From Paracyclopina nana (Eukaryota; Arthropoda; Copepoda; Cyclopoida; Cyclopettidae), in the NCBI GenBank assembly GCA_019096065.1, contig JAGUCH010000002.1:14148501-14212500 (forward strand): DNA of 64,000 bases. The letters are read 5' to 3'. A program made the position numbers and the translations under genes. Below the pieces are notes generated by a model, which was not told where the DNA came from, did no database searches, and was given only the letters and a program-made list of their open reading frames with translations. Positions 13,815-45,407 of this stretch are shown here, piece by piece; position 1 is the stretch's first letter; every line of letters begins with the position of its first letter.

Positions 13815-15689
13815 ATGTATACATTAAGGCAAAAAGTGTTTTTATGGGCGCTATACACTAGGATACTTATCATCACCATTCAGGTAAAAATCCTTTCAAT
13901 CTGCCTTTATTGAAATACGACGGCTCTTTTTTCTAGTTTTTTGCCAACTTGTGCCTGAATCAGACTGAGGCTGCAAAGAGAGAACATGAAGAACATAATG
14001 TCAACAAGTCTTCTTTTCAATGGGTTCAAGTTGAGCCATTCAACAAGAACGAGTCACATGTTGACTCACTGGAAGCATCAGATGTCATCTACCTTCTTTT
14101 TGGTGGCTTGGTTCCCTCCAATGATGAAGAATCTCAGCACAACTTGCATATTGCAAGCAATGGCTACACCTACGAAAGTAATTTGGACTACTTCCCATTT
14201 TATCCCTTGCTCATCAAAACAGTAGCCAGTTCATTCACCTGGTTGTTCAGTGCCAATGGAGGAGTCACCAATCCCTCCACCTTCATCTTGAGCTCAGTGA
14301 TTGTCAACACTTTGCTCTTTGCCTTGGCTGCAGATAGGCTGTACTTGCTATCTAGAATTGTGCTCAGAGATGAGTATTTGGCCTACAAGTCAGCCCTCTT
14401 CTTCTGTGTCAGTCCTTCTAGTGTCCTATTTGTGGCCCCTTTGACTCTATCCCTGCTATCTGTGACCTCCTTTGCCTCAATGATTTCCATTGAAAGGGGC
14501 ATGGGATTGACCACAGGTAATTAAGAGAAAAAAGCATTCTTCTTTCCAATTCAAAATCCTGATTTTTGTAGGGGTATTTCTGGCACTGGCAGTAGCTTCT
14601 CATCCGAGTGGACTGTCAGTATTGCTTATGGTTTTGCACTACAGCATGAGGCATGTGGCAACTCAAACAATTTTGTATGTGAAACAAAAGAGAAAAAACA
14701 AGCAAGAAGGAAGTGGCAATCCAATTAATAATCAATTGTTTGAAGCATGCTTCACTGTGGGCCTGTCAGCTTTGCTGCCTGGAGTCTGGTGCATCATGGC
14801 AGCCACCTCACCATTTGCAGCTTTCCAATGGTTCGGTTTCACTGCTTTTTGCAAGCTCAAAAGCTCAGAGCTGTCCACATTTCCAATACAAATTGAAGAA
14901 TATGGGAATCTTCGCAACATGACCATGCCAGGAAGTGATGTGAAGCCTGATTGGTGCGATTTGAGCCCACCTATTCCACTTTACCATATGACAATGAAAG
15001 CCATTGAAAGCAGAGATGTTCTGGAGCAGGATTGGCTCAGTTATGTTGCCAGCTTACCAGCCTTTGTGCTTGTCATGTGGCAATTGAGCATCTTTGTAAA
15101 AGTGCATAAAAGGTATTGCCTCAGGCTGGGTCTGGTTGATAATTCACTGTTAGGAATGGCCATGCCTAAAACACTGTCATGGGTTGTTTCCAGGTAAATT
15201 TCAATTATGTAGTTATGCTTAGCTATCCATCATTCTTTGCAGAGCTTTGCCAAGAAATGCCTTCATCTTCCTTGTCCATGCCTTTTCTCTGATTGCTTCA
15301 AGCATTTACCTCGGTTCTGTTCAGGTAATCCGAATTGAATCCTTGCTTAAGATGAGTAGTTTTAACTTTGATTGTTGCAGAGTGTGGGAAGAATATTGGT
15401 GGCTAGTGATCCAACATTATATTGGATAGCTGCTCTTATTACAACATCTAGTGACAAAGAAGCCATGCCAGTCCTTGCTAAGCACCAAAATGCCTTTCCA
15501 GATGGCAAAGATGCTGAAAACATATCTGTCACAGTTGAATCTGGGAGAAATTTGAGGAGTGCAGTCTCCACTTTAGTCTTGTCTGAAGTTTCCAACTCAG
15601 AATTGGCCAATTGGACCAAAATTTACTTTTTTGGCTACCTATCACTGGGCACGGTGATTTTTGCCAGCAATTTCTCAGGCCCCTTGTGA
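13815..15689 (+). CDS. PIGV: GPI mannosyltransferase 2 (PIG-V)
   Basis: Five exons: 13815-13883, 13937-14516, 14572-15193, 15243-15324 and 15381-15689. PIG-V is a multi-pass ER enzyme that adds the second mannose to the GPI anchor precursor. The N terminus (RQKVFLWALYTRILIITIQ) parallels the first helix of human PIG-V. Also seen are NGYTYESNLDYFPFYPLL, FFCVSPSSVLF, WCD...PPIPLY and the C-terminal GRILVASDPTLYW, which matches the TRFL.SSTPI.YW of the family. The start at 13815 is chosen because it aligns with the human start. The region matching the catalytic HWDAEHF motif reads PSNDEESQHNL, so the usual Trp is not evident. The gene converges on TUBGCP2, with only 77 bp between stop codons. 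Confidence 0.85.
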
Positions 15690-15766
15690 AGGCAAAAAAG
15701 TCTAAATATCTTTTTTTGAAAGTTAGGTATTTTAAATTTATTTATCTCCACATGTACAAAATAATT

Positions 15767-18497
15767 TTATTTGCTCTGACTGCGACCAAATGAGTCCAAG
15801 GCTTTGGAATAAAACCCATTAAAATCCAATCTGTAGAGAATGTTGAGCATTTTCTCATTGTAATTCTCCCTAGCAAGTTGAGATATTCTGTCCAACAATG
15901 AAACGAGCACAGCAGTGAATCTGAGGTCAAACTTGCTAACATCTTCTTCAAACGCCTCAAAATTGTCCAGAGTATCCAAGTCACTCATGTAATATGAGAA
16001 CTCTGAGCAAACACCAAGCAGCTTCTTGACTGTGGTTAAAAGTTGAGGGTTTGATAGCAAGCAATCATTGAGACAAGTGGACAAAAAGTCTGAATGGATT
16101 TGTAAAACCTGATCCACGTTGGCCACTTTTCCACCAGTTATTTTTGCAATCAGATCTACCCAGGTAGGCTCAAGAACCTCAAAAGTCATGTAGTATTCAA
16201 GGTTCTGAAGGAAATGCAACATTTTCTGCTTGAGAGCCAAGCTTGCTAGGAAAATATTTGATGTGTCATTCTTGAGAATCTTTGTGGTAATCCAGACACT
16301 AGTGAGAAGGGTTTCCACGTGCTTGCAATAGAGCAAGTGTCTAAGGAGCATTTGATAGCAAGCCAATGACTTCCTATTTAGCACCAAGGAAATTGGCCAC
16401 TGCACATCATATCCAAAAGCAAAAGCCTCCAATCCAGTTAGCTCAGAATTGGCAGGTTTTTTAAAGTCTGCCTCTGACTCTGTATCAATTGACAAAATTT
16501 TACACATCTGGAAAAAAAATCCAAATTGAGCCTTTCACATGAGCAATCCCATTATGCAGAATCTTAAAAAGATATTGTGAGCATATTTCATCATTCAACA
16601 AATCTGATAGCCAGATAAAGAATTGTGCGATGCGTGTAAGAACTTACTTGGAAAATGAGGTCATAGGGAAGAAGCTCCACTCTAACATTGTCTTTGTAAG
16701 GATCGTCTTTTGCAGCTGAGGTGCTCAATGCCAAAACTAATAGAGACTCCAGGCGAGTGGGCTCTACTAAGTCCACACTTTGGCAGAGCTCTTCACCGCA
16801 CAAATCCATGAATTGAACAATGAAATCTCCCTGGTCCAGTAGGAAGTAATGCTTGACAGAACGCAAATGCCCAATTAAATCGCGATCTTTCACAAGTAGA
16901 TCCAGCAAGTTTTTTGATGCAAAAGCATAAGCCTTTTCCAAGGGCGCATTGTAGTCTTCAGGATTTTCAAAGTATCTCAAGTCCTCATCCTCATCTTGGC
17001 TCTTAGCATCAGGTTCATCAGAGGGTTTTTTAAACGGGTTGAGGAGCAATTTTGGCCTGGTTCTCTCTGCCTTGTAAAAGGTCTTTTTTGCCTTGCCTTG
17101 CTCACACTGCTGAATGACATTCAGATACTTTCCAGTCCTCAATATCTTGTCAACGTTGGCATGCAAAAAAGCAGGTATTTGCTCTGCCTTGATGGAATAT
17201 CTGCGCTCCCAGTAGTCATCAGAGTACTCCAGAGGTAGCACAGTTCGCTCAATCACCTCATTGTCTTCTACAAAAAAATCTTTGCCAGGATCTTCAATGA
17301 TGCCTTGATGCAGCCATCTCCTTAAAATCTAAAAACACAAAAAATAAGTATCTATGGAGATCAAATAAGAGAGAGCATACCATAAAGTAGGATTCTGCGG
17401 CAGCTTTGGTCAATAGTAAACCCAAATCCCGCAACTTTTCAGTGCTGGCCAGAGATTGAGTGACACACTTTTCATGGAGCAAAGACAGAGTTTTCCCACC
17501 TCTCGCATGATACTTTTCAATGGTGGAGCACAAATCAGCCATGAATGACATGGCATCCATCGTTGGCTGGATATACGACCACATCTTGTTAAGTGTCAGT
17601 TCGCCTAAACGGTGCTGTGTCTCCAACTGTGCAACGAAAACGTAGTAGTCCTTGAGGACATCTCCTAGTGCTTGTGACAAGGCCTGATTTACGCAACCGC
17701 TGCCCATTTGAGTGTGTTTCTCTACGAAGGCAACCACTGTGGAGTAGTGGCTACATAATGGGGTGATTCTTTTCAGCAACTCCCTCAGAGTAGGGTTGAC
17801 TTTTCGATCGATGTCCAGGTGAATGCCGTCTTTTCGCACCGGTTTCACGTGGATGCCATTAATGCCAATGAAGCAGTAGAGTAAGTCCTGGACAATTGCA
17901 TTCTCTTGGCTGGAGACGGGGACACAGCTAAGTTCTCCATAGTCCCTGTTGCTTTCATCCTTGTAGTCCACAATGAAGTCATTTGTGAGCAGCGTTCGAT
18001 CTTGGAATAACTTGGGTACTTTAGCAGCCTGAGCCTCTTTGCAAGACTCCAAAAAGGCCTTGGAGCCTACTTGCTGCAATAGCTTTTCTTTCAGGCTTTG
18101 GTAGTCAGCTGAAGTTTCGTGAGACCTAGGCTTTAGCGTGAAGTAGTTCACCGTGTTCTGGTTGTCACTGATGCCATGCAACACCTCAAGCATGGGGGCT
18201 AAGTTGCCGCCAGAAATGCTGGAGGCCTCATCATAGCTTTGCAAGAAGTCTGCCTCGTTTCCAGACTTTTTGGCCAAATCTCGCAGTTTTCTCTGAGGCA
18301 ATTCTTGCAGCGTGCCCGAATTTCGGCCCACCAATGATCTCAATTGGGTGATGTGATTGTTCACAATATCCTACAAAATGATCAGAATTTGACCGCTCTC
18401 GAATTGGCAAGCAAAAAATGTAGCAAAAGTATATTACCGTGGGCACATTAGAGTTTTTGGTCAGCTCGTGCACGATACCGAAGACCCCTCCGTCCAT
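15767..18497 (-). CDS. TUBGCP2: Gamma-tubulin complex component 2
   Basis: Four exons on the minus strand: 18497-18438, 18370-17381, 17328-16648 and 16507-15767, in frame, giving 823 residues (human about 900). Diagnostic GCP2 blocks are VQDLLYCFIGI, LSLLHEKCV near the exon 2 end, DYWERRYSI followed by PAFLHANVDKILRTGKYLN, the GCP core EKAYAFASKNLLDLL, and VQWPISLVLNRKSLACYQ then LLRHLLYCKHVE. GCP2 pairs with GCP3 in the small gamma-tubulin complex that nucleates microtubules at centrosomes. The ATG lies 7 nt after a strong acceptor (ttctttcttctag), and the SLC7A6OS stop is only 86 bp upstream on the same strand. Confidence 0.93.
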
Positions 18498-18583
18498 AGT
18501 TTACCTAGAAGAAAGAATTTATTGCAAATTAATATTCTCGTCAAGCAGTTATTCAGTTGACAATGGAAGTGTTGTTGTGCATT
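18498..18583 (-). promoter_or_regulatory. Operon-like junction between SLC7A6OS and TUBGCP2
   Basis: Read on the minus strand: about 60 nt after the SLC7A6OS stop comes AATAAA (18523-18518), then TTCTTTCTTCTAG ending at 18505, then 7 nt and the TUBGCP2 ATG. A poly(A) signal followed at once by a pyrimidine-rich 3' splice site is the layout expected where a polycistronic transcript is cleaved and the downstream gene is trans-spliced. A 5' UTR intron running through the upstream gene is the alternative. Confidence 0.5.
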
Positions 18584-19603
18584 TTAAAATTCATCCCATT
18601 CATTAATGTCATCATTTGTAATGTCTTCTTCCTCCTCCTCTCCTTCGCCCATTTCCTTGAGCATTTTGCGTTTCCATTTTGCATACGCAGTCCCGTGCAA
18701 GTCACAGTCTTGCTCATACTTTGCATCCCTGCTGAACACCAGATCATCGTCATCAACATCTGACTCTTCTGGAGAACTGGCTATCTCCTTGTTGCCATGA
18801 CGCAAATGGAACTTGTCAAAGTCCAGCTCCAATTCCCCCTCATTGTAGTCATTGTCATCTTCTGAGCACTCCTCCTCATCAGGGTAGTCATTTCTCCAAT
18901 TATCTTCATCGTTCGAGTCAGAATCCTCGCCTTGCAACGTGTTTCGCCATTCAAGCTCATCTTGCTCGTAGTCTCGGCAGTCGAGAAAGCTGACATCCAC
19001 GATGTCCATGGCGTTGAAGAAGTCATCGCCAATGTAAGAGTGATCAGAGTCGGTGCTCGAAAAGGCATCATTTGTCATGGTGTACACGTCATAGACAAAC
19101 TCCTCTTCTGCTAGCTTGACCAGCGGAACGCCATTGCAAGTGATTTGATCAACGTGCTCAACTTTGCCGTTGTCTTCCTTCTTAATATAGGCCTCGTCTT
19201 TGACAAGATCTACTAATTTGTAAAGCCTGTCTTGCTCTTCTTTCAAGCCATCTTCATTATTTATTCCGCGAAGATCCGAAATGATTTTGTACCTCTTCTC
19301 ACTTTGCGTCTTTGTCTCATTACTTGAAGTTTTCGGCTTGGCTAGGATTCTCTTCATCAACTTCGGATCTGTCTTAGTATTCCTTTCTCCAGCTTTCTCG
19401 AGGGCTCGTTTTATCTCCTCATGGCCCGAGTTTTCCACAGTTGCGGCGAACTTGAAAATTGCGTTCGAAGGTGACTCGAGCGTTTCTTCATTTTCTTTAC
19501 GCTTTTTGGCAGAAAGATGAAGTAACAGCGCGCCAGCAGGAGACTGCGAGCGTCGTCGTTTCACCCTTAATATGGGCGTGGTGGGAGGTGTGGCAGTGGC
19601 CAT
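18584..19603 (-). CDS. SLC7A6OS: Iwr1-type RNA polymerase II nuclear import factor
   Basis: Intronless, 339 residues, starting at MATATPPTTPILRVKRRRS. The N-terminal LRVKRRR is the conserved Iwr1/SLC7A6OS start with a basic nuclear signal. Further blocks are NAIFKFAATVE, YKIISDLR, LYKLVDLV, FVYDVYTM and ENDWRN-like EDNWRNDYPDEEE, the most conserved part of the family. The C-terminal third is very acidic, ending GEEEEEDITNDDINEWDEF. In yeast, Iwr1 binds assembled Pol II and directs its import. The ATG at 19603 is preferred over an in-frame GTG upstream. It is divergent from RALGAPB and closely followed by TUBGCP2. Confidence 0.88.
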   Translation of the reverse strand: MATATPPTTPILRVKRRRSQSPAGALLLHLSAKKRKENEETLESPSNAIFKFAATVENSGHEEIKRALEKAGERNTKTDPKLMKRILAKPKTSSNETKTQSEKRYKIISDLRGINNEDGLKEEQDRLYKLVDLVKDEAYIKKEDNGKVEHVDQITCNGVPLVKLAEEEFVYDVYTMTNDAFSSTDSDHSYIGDDFFNAMDIVDVSFLDCRDYEQDELEWRNTLQGEDSDSNDEDNWRNDYPDEEECSEDDNDYNEGELELDFDKFHLRHGNKEIASSPEESDVDDDDLVFSRDAKYEQDCDLHGTAYAKWKRKMLKEMGEGEEEEEDITNDDINEWDEF

Positions 19604-20086: not shown

Positions 20087-23000
20087 ATGTACAAAAATTG
20101 GGCCTCGTCCTCCACCTCGCAGTTTGGCACTGCCGGAAATGGTGCATACCAATCCGTGCTGTCCAAGCTCCCCTCGGAGGATGCCAAGCGAGTGGTCATG
20201 TCGGTGGTGAAAACCGTAGCTTCTCAACTAGGCCTCACCTCACCGAACCAAATCAAGCCTTCAACTTTGACAAGGGACGCCGAGGTCGCCTGGTTCATGG
20301 AAGTCATTGGATTCGGTTTAGCGCTGCCCTTCTCAGACCATGACACCATCAAGGATTGCGTCAACATCTACTGTGAATGGCTTTCTGCCCTTCTTCCCGA
20401 CCCCAAGGCCTGCGTACCCTCACCCATAATTCAGGACCCTAATTTGTACGCGAGGAAAATTGTCCAGCATTTGTACCACCTGTTCGTACCAAGGCCAGGC
20501 GATATCAGCGAAATGATCCATAGGCAAGCCGTGCTTTGCCACCGAGTCCTACGCAGGATCCAGGACATTGTCAAGCAGTCATCAGTGATGGCAACGGATA
20601 CGTGGGAATCCTTCCTGTCCTTTTTGTTGGCCATCAATGATGCCTTGCTTTCGCCGCCTGCGGTGAAAGAGGACGTTGGTGACCAACTTTGCGAACGCGT
20701 ATTGGGAGTCCTTTACGAGATTTGGCTCGTTGCGTGCCTCAGATCCTTTCCGAGTCCACCCTTGTGGAAAACTTTGAGAGAAATGTGCATGAACTGGAGG
20801 CACAGGTCAGGGTTGGTAGACCAGTGGAATAGAGTCAACTTGGCTCTGTTATCAAGGATGATCCCTCCAATGCTGGGGCCCAAGTTTCCTCTGCTCAGGA
20901 TTGATGACATTGACGCTGCTCTAGTCCCAGCTGAAATGCCCTATGAAACTGTGGCCCAGGCCTGGTATCGATTTCTCCACTCAATTGGCAACCCAGTGGA
21001 CCTATCTAGGCCTGAGGTGATTTCTCAGACACAGGCCTTTTATCAGTACGCCATTGTGGCAAAAAATGTGATTGACCCTACACATCATCCTTGCCTTGAG
21101 GCTTTACCTGACATTTTCCTCAAGTCCATGCAAAGCACGTCGAATATGGTGGACGCCTTCATGGGGATACCTAATTACAGACCGAATTTGGCCAGCCAAA
21201 GATTGACGAAATCCGAGTCTGTCAAATCACTGCAAAGTAAGTTTTCATAGTTCATATACCATATTAACGCATTTCATGATGAAAATTCAAGATACTCATC
21301 GAGCTTTTGCTCTTTTGAATTCCAGTTTAAAATTGAGCTGAAGCCTTGACTTCTAGCTGATAAGACCTGATTCCACTTAGTTTTAAATATGCATATAATT
21401 AAAGCCAAGAGTCGGTTAATGATTCCTATTATATTCTAGGTGAATACAAGAACCAAAACAGGCCGAATGTCAATTCAGTTTTACACCTTTTTGGAGGCTG
21501 GCTTTTTGAGGCTGCTTTCATTGGCAACGAGGATTTGGTGCCTGGCAAATCCCAAGAAAACGAAGTGAAGTCTGACAAGTCGATTGAAATGCCACCTGGG
21601 CTGTCACCTGGGAAATTCGAGTTGGGCAAGGCCGAAGCCTTGGGGGCTTTGTGCCGGGTGTTTTGCTTTAAGAAGACCGATGAAGAGATTTCTCCTTTGT
21701 ACTTGGCTCGATTTTACCTCGCCTTACAGCGTGGCCTGAAAATCAAGGGGAAATTATCAGACACTGTAGGAATGATACTTGTGAACTCTTGCGACATCTT
21801 CAGGTCGAATTTAGAAGGAGCAAACATTATTTTGCCACACTTTGTTTCTGCCTTGGAAGCCATTCTGTCTGACAAAGACATCAAGACACCACTTTCTTGT
21901 GTTACCTACAACGAAGTGAGGCGATCTGCCATTCAAATTTTGCTATCTATTCTTCCCCTTCCAAACCACTTCAAGGTAATTATTAAGTGACATTGAATGA
22001 AATGAATACTAATGTGCCTTCCTCCTTTTCTAGAATATGAAGAAAATTGAAGGCAATCCACTCACAGTAGATTTTGATGAAATTCAGGCAAAAGTCCACA
22101 AGTTGCTTTATAACGCGTTACAAATTGAAAATGATCCAATCAACACGCAAATTCTACTCGGTGGCCTGATGCTCAATATCCAAGAAGCTGGAAATTGCTC
22201 AGACATGCTTCCAAGTAACATTAAACTCCATCGTAAAGGAACCATAATTCATTAACTTTCTGATAGGGTCAGAGTTTGTAAATGCAGCCCATTTGGTGTG
22301 TCATCGGTTGATTTCATCATGGAAGTCAGATTGGAACTCTTCATTGGCAGCTCTGGAAGTTCTCAGGGGCCTGGCAAGAACCAAAATTCTAGAGAAAGGT
22401 AACTTTAAAAATCTTGAACTTTTTGTATGGATGAGCCTCAAAAAAGAGTTATTTTATGCGAAAACGTTGAAATGATGTAGAAATGATAAGAAAGCTCGTA
22501 AAACTGCAACAAAAGAAAATAACATGCATTATATGTTATGTAGGCGTTCTCGTAAGAAATTGGTATATTAAATGCGATTTTTTTCGTTTCTTTAGAGTCA
22601 TTGGAGTGCAAGAGGTCGATGAAATGGATATGCGACTTCATTGTTGCACAATGCTCAAGACCTCCTCCAGCTCATTCCAAGGACCTGCATAGTACAATCG
22701 TGGCTGCGTTCCATTGCTGCAAAACCTGGCTGCTACACCATCCGTATCTCCTCCAGGACAAAGAGTGTATTTCAACGGTGCTAGAAGTCATAGAATTGGG
22801 AATATCTGGCAGCAAGTCGATTGGCAAATCGAGTGAGCCTCCAGTTATGAAGGAACACAAAACAGCCAATCCAGCCTCGAGGAGGGTGAGAGAGGCTGCT
22901 GAAAGCCTTCTTTGTGCCCTCATGGAGAACGTGGACTTCTACACAGTCTATTGTGGAGCAGAGTCGTTGTCCTCTACCATAGACGAGGTGGCCTTTGTAT

Positions 23001-24687
23001 ATTTAGGCTCTGGAGAAATGCTCACCATGTTGCAGGCCGTGCAAAACTTCCGCTACTATGTCCTTGACAACAACATTCTGCTTGGAATTTTCGAAGACCT
23101 TAGTCGTAGCGGATACGAGCAGCAAGCAAAGGTACGATTTTTTTTTTTTAATTTTTTTTTTGAATTTTTTTTTTGAATTTTTTTTCTCGTTTATGCAACC
23201 TATTTCCAAAAAAATACAGTTTGAAAAGTTTTAGAACTTAGCTATCACACACAAAAATAATTAATTAGTTTTTTCTTTGAGACATTGAATGTTGTCAAAT
23301 CAACTGTCGTGTTATTGTAGGTTACTGTTATCATTTTGTCTTTCAGGTTTCTGTCATTTTAAGAGGCATGTCCTCTAGATCCGCTTGGACCATGCAACTA
23401 AGACATCTGCCTAGACACAAGAGCGGCCAGAAAGCCTCAAGCTCCAACCCTGGACGGCCATTACCCATTGAGGATCAAGCACTGAAAAAGTCCTTCAAGT
23501 CGAGCTACTTTCCAGAGTCCATTGACAAAATTCCACTGTGCAAGGCTGACAAAAGTATTCCAGCTGTGGAGAGTGTGGCTTTGGATGAACACTCGCTGCT
23601 CGAACTGGATAACTTATCTCACATGATGGATGAGCAAGCCCGCTTGGAACAGTCTTCTAGCCAACTCATTCAGTACGTGGAGAATCCTGAACTTGAGAGT
23701 CAATCACCTGAGCCGTGTCAAGAGTACCAAGCTGCTCGCCTGGTATTGTCCCACCTCGGCCTCTTAAGAATGCTGGAGCCGAAACAGCAAGCCAACTCGA
23801 CTCCCTCAATGGTCCCCTTGACCACGGATAGCGTAGATTTTGTCAACGACCTCGAAAAGCTGGACAGGTTGTCCACAAGGACGGCCGAGACTGTCTACGT
23901 ATTTTACATGAAGAGCGGCCAGAAGAACCCAGAGGAAATATTGAGGAATGTGTGCAAAGTTGAGGCTGTAAATTACGCCTTCTTGGACTTTCTGGCTAGC
24001 TTAGGCTGGCCTGTCAATGTCTGGCATCACACCGGCTGGACTGGAAGGTTGTCAACGTCCTGGAGGTCACAACACGAGCCCATGGTCCCTCCAACTTTGG
24101 TCAATCACGGTGGCGCCATTTTCAATGGCGATCATCATGTGCTTTACTGGGCTGACTCCGAGTCTGAGATAGCCTTTGTGGTACCAAGTGCCAAGTCAAG
24201 CTTTAAGCCAGACCAAGTGGACAGCGATTCCAACAAGATGACGAGGCAGCAGAGCACTGTCATGTTAAGTGACACAAAAGTATCGGTCGTTTGGCTGGAA
24301 AACTTCGATGATATTGCCAACTTCCCTGCCGAAGCTTTAATCATGAATGTCTCTGAGCTTGAGCAGAGTCCTGGGTTCAGTCTCAAGGATGTCGTTCTCA
24401 TTTTCGTCCATGTGATGAGCAACGGTCTGCTCAAAGTGAAACTTATGGGTCATCAAGGCAAGTTGGTGATCCCACTAATGAATGACATGGTGATGCCAAA
24501 GAGTTCACTTGGTCCGTTGGTGAGGCAGACTGTGGTCAATTTCGCAGATCGTCGTCGTCTGGAGCATGACAACTACCAACCACCCCTGGTCAAGCGAAAA
24601 CTGTTGATTCAAGAGATTCAGCGCAAGTATTGCTCCAATTTGAGTGAGGCAGACCTCTTCACCGATTTATTTTCTGAGCACAGTTAA
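20087..24687 (+). CDS. RALGAPB: Ral GTPase-activating protein subunit beta
   Basis: Six exons: 20087-21236, 21440-21975, 22034-22214, 22267-22398, 22596-23131 and 23347-24687, in frame for 1291 residues. It follows human RALGAPB along its length: MYKNWAS start, EVAWFMEVIGFGLALP, WESFLSFLLAINDALL, YEIWLVACLRSFPSPP, WFRFLH-like WYRFLHSIGNPVDLS, LHLFGGWLFEAA, RSSI-like RRSAIQILLSILPLP, SRPPPAHSKDLHSTIVAAF, ELGISGSKS, then the C-terminal FYMKSGQKNPEEIL, GWTGRLSTSW and SVVWLENFDDI. The beta subunit is needed for stability and activity of the RalGAP heterodimer, which turns off RalA/RalB downstream of Akt. Introns are 52-215 bp; the last contains several T runs (23139-23184). Confidence 0.95.
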
Positions 24688-44709: not shown

Positions 44710-45407
44710 TTAATGACGACTGATACAATCAATGCACTCCTCGTGGTGCTCAGCAATGATGCATTCAACCATGCAGGTGAAGTAGTCAGGGGAGGAAGAG
44801 CATTGGAAAGCGCACAGAGTGATGTAGGCTGCGCACTTGATGTAATCCTCAGTATGGCAAGTTTTTGTGTCGAGTGACTTTGGCTTGGGAACTAGGAGTT
44901 CCTGAGCCATTTTGCAAGACTCACAAGTGTGGCAACCATTGCAATCGCAAAACCCATCACCGCATCCGTCATTTTTAGCAACTACACCGCGTTGAGGGAC
45001 AAGAGCTTCTTGGGCCAATTTGCATGACTGGCAAGTGTGGCATCCATTGCAATCGCAAAATCCAGGTCCACAGCCATCATCCTTGAGGCAGGAAGAGGCT
45101 TTCAGTTCCTCCATGATCTGAGCCTCCTTGCTGATGCAATCAATGCACTCTTCATGGTGCTCAGCAATGATGCATTCAACCATGCAGGTGAAGTAGTCAG
45201 GGGAGGAAGAGCATTGGAAAGCGCACAGAGTGATGTAGGCTGCGCACTTGATGTAATCCTCAGTGTGGCAAGTTTTGGGTTGGGCAACCGCACCTAAAGG
45301 GTTAAGTTATTATATTTTGTAGTAATTTGGGATCAAAGTATGTTACTGGATTGAACTGAAGCGGTGGCAACAGCCAAGGTCAAAATCAAAGCTTTGATTG
45401 CAGCCAT
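44710..45407 (-). CDS. Secreted cysteine-rich protein with internal duplication
   Basis: Two exons on the minus strand, 45407-45347 and 45293-44710, give 214 residues. A signal peptide (MAAIKALILTLAVATASVQS) is encoded by exon 1. The mature part has a module A of about 50 residues, CHTEDYIKCAAYITLCAFQC continuing to EECIDCIS, at both ends, and a module B, DGCG.GFCDCNGCHTC.SCK, twice in the middle: order A-B-B-A. All cysteines are conserved between copies. The pattern suggests a disulphide-rich extracellular or metal-binding protein. I recognise no family. A TATA box lies 41 nt upstream of the ATG. Confidence 0.82.

What the first reader, a model, noticed from the sequence alone, without database searches (positions are those of the whole stretch)
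18498..19603. Possible two-gene operon SLC7A6OS-TUBGCP2 with a trans-splice-type junction
Both genes are on the minus strand with only 86 bp between stop and start. In that gap an AATAAA is followed about 12 nt later by a strong pyrimidine-rich TAG acceptor and, 7 nt on, the ATG of TUBGCP2. There is little room for an independent promoter. Spliced-leader trans-splicing and operons are established in several animal groups, including some crustaceans; applying that here is inference.
Basis: partly seen in the sequence, partly recalled or inferred. Interest (0 to 1): 0.7.

Follow-up and report, generated by a model that had tools for sequence, protein, structure and literature searches.

The report
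Tightly packed SLC7A6OS and TUBGCP2 genes
Two ordinary housekeeping genes of an unidentified small-genome arthropod sit 86 bases apart on the same strand with a splice-site-like stretch between them, which could mark an animal operon but is more likely ordinary close packing.

Summary
The letters are as described. SLC7A6OS (Iwr1 domain, 339 codons) and TUBGCP2 lie on the minus strand with 86 bp between stop and ATG: AATAAA, a pyrimidine tract ending TAG, then 7 nt to the ATG. The tract scores like accepted 3' splice sites of the window; 2.4% of non-coding windows have one as good and as close.

The operon reading is possible but unproven. The window lies in a 92-Mb genome that is probably an arthropod's. 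Near-ATG acceptors are common in it (13 of 51 starts against 6 of 127 controls). Of ten of those 13 examined further, seven have a strong cis donor upstream, so ordinary 5'UTR introns explain most. No spliced-leader gene was found: two copepod leaders and nematode SL1 gave no credible match, and the 5S units read carry none. That is weak evidence; unknown leaders could not be scanned for. No donor above 6.9 lies between 18545 and 20100, which leaves trans-splicing open.

I favour two separately expressed, closely packed genes (about 0.45), with a cis-spliced upstream exon and a leader-resolved operon at about 0.25 each. TUBGCP2 5' ends would decide.

The parts
18584..19603 (-). SLC7A6OS / Iwr1-like gene, one open exon of 339 codons plus stop
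   Evidence: ORF; Pfam Iwr1 E 1.9e-8
18498..18583 (-). 86-nt gap between the SLC7A6OS stop and the TUBGCP2 ATG
   Evidence: read directly
18518..18523 (-). AATAAA, probable poly(A) signal of SLC7A6OS, 60 nt after its stop
   Evidence: use not shown
18505..18517 (-). TTCTTTCTTCTAG: acceptor-like tract, score 7.2 (ten accepted introns of the window 3.3-8.5); its first seven letters also fit a TCT-type initiator
18528..18532 (-). TTAAT, one of two branch-point-like motifs (the other is TTGAC at 18544-18540); its A would be about 24 nt before the end of the AG
   Evidence: pattern match only
18438..18497 (-). TUBGCP2 coding exon 1 (MDGGVFGIVHELTKNSNVPT)
15767..18370 (-). rest of TUBGCP2, exons 2 onward
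   Evidence: Pfam GCP_N and GCP_C in three ORFs
20087..24687 (+). RALGAPB, head to head with SLC7A6OS, leaving about 480 nt between the two ATGs
   Evidence: Pfam RALGAPB_N E 1.4e-38 in the first ORF; start by peptide position; later exons from the ORF list only

Best explanation
This is a tandem pair of unrelated housekeeping genes packed closely in a compact arthropod genome and expressed as two separate mRNAs. SLC7A6OS is driven from the divergent region shared with RALGAPB and ends at the AATAAA in the gap. TUBGCP2 has its own start site in the gap or in the last part of the SLC7A6OS gene, and its short 5' UTR is not joined to a leader. The pyrimidine tract is then either a chance acceptor look-alike or part of a pyrimidine-rich initiator. 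Shown: the gene anatomy and spacing. Inferred: the separate start site, the promoters and the poly(A) site.
For: Compact genome: 91.95 Mb in 10 contigs, nine of them over 6 Mb. A second close same-strand pair, two Ras-like genes with 104 nt between stop and ATG, has only a weak acceptor-like TTTTTAAG (score 0.7) before its ATG, so close spacing here does not always come with a strong acceptor. The tract contains the only YYCTTTY in 18900-18498, 0.44 expected. AATAAA within 300 nt of the stop is common (9 of 15 gene ends). The leaders sought were not found.
Against: A tract this strong so near the end is seen in only 2.4% of non-coding windows, and near-ATG acceptors in this genome are above background (13 of 51 starts against 6 of 127 control windows at score 7 or more), so the tract may be a real splice site. 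No TATAWA or TCAKTY in 18900-18498; the looser initiator YYANWYY has 2 hits where 4.5 are expected. Many promoters lack these.
Confidence: 0.45

Rival explanations
1. A two-gene operon: one pre-mRNA from the SLC7A6OS promoter, cut and polyadenylated at the AATAAA, with TUBGCP2 freed by trans-splicing of a spliced leader to the acceptor at 18505. The poly(A) signal and the acceptor nearly touch, as in zero-spacing operons.
For: 86-nt gap; AATAAA directly followed by the 13-nt tract that ends in the acceptor AG; branch-point-like motifs at 18532 and 18544; acceptor score 7.2, as strong as accepted ones; in-frame TAA right after the acceptor; no donor above 6.9 between 18545 and 20100. In the chaetognath Spadella three bases separate the poly(A) site of RPS14 from the acceptor of PCNA (passages of PMC2481426). 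Leaders are known in some crustaceans: copepods (PMC4664967) and amphipods (PMC7986045 passage).
Against: Calanoid leader core: 11 scattered hits with 2-3 mismatches against 1 hit of the reversed control; ten of the 11 were fetched and share no leader-like unit (one pair, L069/L071, shares a 272-nt stretch away from the hit). Siphonostomatoid leader: 0 hits. SL1 family: 0 matches, with only the best 50 of 27226 first-look candidates scored. No leader gene seen in the 5S units read. 7 of 10 strong near-ATG acceptors examined have a strong cis donor. PMC7986045 says operons had not been reported in copepods or amphipods (passage).
Confidence: 0.25
2. Cis-splicing of an upstream 5' UTR exon. TUBGCP2 transcripts start upstream of or inside SLC7A6OS, for example at the divergent promoter, and an exon there is spliced to 18505, skipping the SLC7A6OS reading frame, so the two genes share or overlap transcripts.
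For: Ordinary 5' UTR introns seem common here: strong donors lie upstream of near-ATG acceptors, for example 11.5 at -79 in L089, 11.0 at -64 in L138, 11.7 at -402 in L149, 10.8 at -619 in L151; donors upstream of acceptor-bearing starts are stronger (Mann-Whitney p 0.017). A donor of 6.9 lies at 19302 and one of 10.5 at 20238, antisense in RALGAPB exon 1; two of five accepted donors score only 5.3 and 6.2.
Against: No donor above 6.9 within 1.5 kb upstream; random positions show this in 14% of cases. It needs a start site far upstream of or inside another gene's coding sequence.
Confidence: 0.25

Closest known systems
Zero-spacing operons resolved by spliced leaders (chaetognath Spadella RPS14-PCNA; Ciona and C. 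elegans SL1-type operons are recalled as similar)
   Same: Same-strand genes, poly(A) signal next to the acceptor, acceptor just before the ATG
   Different: No leader RNA gene, leader-bearing mRNA or polycistronic RNA has been shown here
C. elegans SL2-type operons
   Same: Close same-strand genes
   Different: There about 100 bp separate poly(A) signal and acceptor (PMC1657053 passage); here 13 nt to the end of the AG
Spliced-leader trans-splicing in calanoid and siphonostomatoid copepods
   Same: Both in arthropods; the window's species could be a copepod, which was not established
   Different: No credible match to those leaders here, and operons had not been reported in copepods or amphipods (PMC7986045 passage)
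Close tandem genes in compact genomes without operons (Dimorphilus gyrociliatus)
   Same: Small genome and short intergenic gaps
   Different: There absence of leaders was tested with RNA and chromatin data (PMC7854359 passages); here it was not

Membership tests
Spliced-leader-resolved operon | Adjacent same-strand genes with a very short gap | tested here: met
   86 nt
Spliced-leader-resolved operon | Poly(A) signal of the upstream gene inside the gap | tested here: met
   AATAAA 18523-18518; use of it not shown
Spliced-leader-resolved operon | 3' splice site before the downstream ATG that has no cis donor | tested here: inconclusive
   Acceptor 7.2; best donor up to 20100 is 6.9 at 19302; accepted donors here can be 5.3-6.2
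Spliced-leader-resolved operon | Leader RNA genes in the genome | tested here: inconclusive
   Nematode SL1, two copepod leaders and the 5S units read were negative; unknown leaders could not be scanned for
Spliced-leader-resolved operon | Leader-bearing mRNAs and bicistronic pre-mRNA | not testable with these tools
   No RNA data at hand
Calanoid CopepodSL system | Leader core CCAAGCTnnnnTTGCTTGATTCAC in multi-copy genes | tested here: not met
   11 scattered hits with 2-3 mismatches, no shared leader-like unit around the ten fetched
Siphonostomatoid copepod leader (CopepodSL-like1) | CCAAGTAAATAATACGTGTCTCTGAC with up to 3 mismatches | tested here: not met
   0 hits
TCT-initiator promoter (motif recalled) | YYCTTTY at the transcription start | tested here: inconclusive
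   TTCTTTC at 18517-18511, 0.44 expected in the stretch; start site unknown

The most novel reading that the evidence does not exclude
The pair is a true bicistronic operon of an arthropod with a small genome, in which poly(A) site and trans-splice acceptor abut and an undescribed, lineage-specific spliced leader frees TUBGCP2. In what I saw, some crustaceans have leaders but no reported operons (passage of PMC7986045; search listings).
Probability: 0.22. Interest if true: 0.72.

Novelty: already known. Interest (0 to 1): 0.33.

Why it matters
If it is an operon, it would bring operons to arthropods and make the question of whether genome compaction goes with trans-splicing testable in a small arthropod genome. 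If it is ordinary, it is a reminder that acceptor-like tracts before the ATG are common in this genome (13 of 51 starts at score 7 or more) and cannot by themselves mark trans-splicing.

Tried and rejected
Identity of the species. TTAGG repeats are at 3 of 9 contig starts looked at (C5, C6, C7; not at C1, C3, C4, C10; C8 and C9 read N there). 80 Chitin_bind_4 matches, a family I recall as arthropod-specific, say arthropod. The arginine kinase piece compared is unusual: best PDB match 4rf6 (a sea anemone's, recalled), with 6ky2 (Daphnia, recalled) far down the list of 44. This made me consider chaetognaths and sponges until. A copepod is my guess, not a result. The 18S search gave no answer from the machine and was not repeated.

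Promoter elements of snRNA genes as a way to find leader genes. Upstream regions of 9 U2 and 7 U1 genes were compared by eye; the shared motif, about TCAAA near -55, seemed too short for a genome-wide search, which I did not run.

Close tandem pairs by open reading frames and a codon score: mostly introns and 5S repeats by my reading, so not used. Ten ORFs from this and other loci were checked in Pfam (three had a match); no further secure tandem pair came out.

L124 (ARF/Ras-like) at first looked like a start with a strong acceptor 24 nt before the ATG. The upstream ORF's donor (9.0) is in phase 0 and the exon is open in the same phase back to the acceptor, so it is probably an internal exon. 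It is one of the 13 of 51; without it the count is 12 of 50.

Rows dropped before the 51: 71 E2 and Ras loci were fetched. 20 were left out by hand before counting: 11 with no in-frame ATG and 9 where an intron seemed to lie just before the domain or the upstream reading was long or ambiguous. With several ATGs I took the first in frame, except L097, L111 and L081. Other thresholds are less clear: at score 3 or more 33 of 51 against 67 of 127, at 5 or more 20 of 51 against 31 of 127, at 6 or more 15 of 51 against 10 of 127.

Donor tally. Of the 13 acceptors of score 7 or more, ten (L111, L122, L089, L103, L138, L100, L139, L094, L096, L124) were judged over 1 kb or were positive within 260 nt; 7 of 10 have a donor printed as 9.0 or more within 1 kb (L111 and L124 print as exactly 9.0), against 25% of 2000 random positions. 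Without L124 it is 6 of 9. L122 (8.0), L100 and L139 lack one. L095, L140 and L085 were not extended; their best donors within 260 nt are 8.2, 7.1 and 5.2. Twelve loci were extended in all: eight of these ten (all but L089 and L138) and four with weaker acceptors, of which L115 and L135 have such a donor and L101 and L129 do not, so 9 of 14 in all. The tally was made by hand from the printed rows.

Full report
Observation. The region was read on the minus strand. SLC7A6OS begins at ATG 19603-19601 and ends at TAA 18586-18584, one open exon of 339 codons. The gap 18583-18498 is 86 nt. It holds AATAAA (18523-18518), then TTCTTTCTTCTAG (18517-18505), then GTAAACT and the ATG of TUBGCP2 at 18497-18495. 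Pfam confirms both genes. The TUBGCP2 start has some support: with exons 1 and 2 joined, residues 52-101 line up with residues 53-102 of the GCP2 chain 7as4_A. That stretch is weak on its own (11 bits, independent E 1.8) but lies ahead of a strong match to the same chain; residues 1-51 are not aligned. After the AG the ATG frame is closed by TAA at 18503-18501, so the acceptor, if used, makes a 7-nt untranslated end and no longer protein.

Context. The window is part of a 91.95-Mb assembly with nine large contigs and one small one. Three of nine contig starts looked at carry CCTAA/TTAGG arrays, and there are 80 Chitin_bind_4 matches, so I take it for an arthropod. The species was not identified. 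SLC7A6OS is head to head with RALGAPB, whose start is at 20087, and TUBGCP2 is tail to tail with an apparent PIG-V gene whose last ORF, not itself tested, ends at 15689.

Is the acceptor more than chance? With a hand-set score the tract gets 7.2; ten introns that I accepted in the window score 3.3-8.5, a set picked partly by score. Of 1318 non-coding 86-nt windows 2.4% have such a site in their last 20 nt, and 0.8% of shuffles of the gap do. The window holds some 20 genes by my reading, so one such site by chance would not be remarkable. But near-ATG acceptors are above background here: 13 of 51 gene starts (E2 and Ras families) against 6 of 127 control windows at score 7 or more (Fisher p 1.6e-4). 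At lower thresholds the difference shrinks (33 of 51 against 67 of 127 at score 3). One of the 13, L124, is probably an internal exon.

Cis or trans? If leaders made these acceptors, upstream donors should not be enriched. They are: donors upstream of acceptor-bearing starts (20, score 5.2 or more) are stronger than those of the other 31 (Mann-Whitney p 0.017). Of ten strong cases examined further, seven have a donor of 9 or more within 1 kb, against 25% of random positions; with four weaker cases it is 9 of 14. Three strong ones were not extended. So ordinary 5' UTR introns explain most of what I examined, and a minority remains open. For TUBGCP2 the strongest donor between 18545 and 20100 is 6.9, at 19302 inside the SLC7A6OS frame. 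Random positions lack a better donor within 1.5 kb in 14% of cases, and two of five accepted donors here score only 5.3 and 6.2. The donor argument therefore leans against an ordinary cis intron without excluding one.

Search for a leader. The nematode SL1 family has no match, though only 50 of 27226 first-look candidates were scored. The calanoid copepod leader core gives 11 scattered near-matches against 1 in the reversed control; ten were fetched and share no leader-like unit. The siphonostomatoid leader has none. The leader sequences came from Table 1 of PMC4664967, of which I saw passages and one section. That paper reports no hits of these leaders in cyclopoid and harpacticoid datasets and leaves open whether those orders have leaders of their own. 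It found copepod leader genes in tandem arrays or with 5S genes. The 5S arrays here, with units of about 471 and 347 bp, show only 5S and 5S-like copies by Rfam and by eye where I read them.

A second close pair. Two Ras-like genes at C4:4782746-4782010 have 104 nt between stop and ATG, no AATAAA or ATTAAA in the gap, and only TTTTTAAG before the ATG (score 0.7). Close packing here does not always bring a strong acceptor.

Mechanism. Three readings remain. Separate genes with a TUBGCP2 start in or near the gap (0.45) need no special machinery; the tract would be chance or an initiator (TTCTTTC fits YYCTTTY). A cis-spliced upstream exon (0.25) fits the genome's habit but lacks a good donor. A leader-resolved operon (0.25) fits the local anatomy best: AATAAA runs straight into the 13-nt tract that ends in the acceptor AG, close to the chaetognath case where three bases separate poly(A) site and acceptor (passages of PMC2481426) and unlike the roughly 100 bp of C. 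elegans operons (passage of PMC1657053). But it needs a leader that has not been shown here. The probabilities are my judgement, not a computation. Operons had not been reported in copepods or amphipods as of PMC7986045 (passage); my own literature searches bearing on arthropod operons were made, of which I saw listings and the passages cited. A compact animal genome can lack operons altogether, as in Dimorphilus (passages of PMC7854359).

Verdict. Observation confirmed; interpretation cannot be decided from sequence. Interest 0.33, and 0.72 if the operon were shown.

Noticed in passing
L060, L061, L063 (own genome C8:2.69 Mb and C3:8.27 Mb): Arginine kinases that by eye look unlike the usual arthropod enzyme; the one piece compared has PDB 4rf6 as best hit.
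   Followed up: partly
L032 and L042 (own genome C1:913-940 kb and C1:1275-1286 kb): Two kinds of 5S array: one with units of about 471 bp, each holding a main and a variant 5S copy where read, and one with units of about 347 bp.
   Followed up: partly
L099 and L090 (own genome C4:4782746-4782010): Two Ras-like genes in tandem with 104 nt between stop and ATG and a weak TTTTTAAG just before the ATG.
   Followed up: partly
L013 and L022 (own genome C2:9131-9135 kb): U2, U5 and U1 genes lie within about 3 kb of each other.
   Followed up: no
window 15689-15767: An apparent PIG-V gene and TUBGCP2 end tail to tail with about 77 nt between their stops.
   Followed up: no
window 44713-45306 (-): Cysteine-rich repeated ORF of 198 residues with no Pfam match at E 0.01.
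   Followed up: no
starts of own-genome contigs C5, C6 and C7 (L009, L008, L007): TTAGG telomere arrays mixed with variant units such as TCCCAACC.
   Followed up: no
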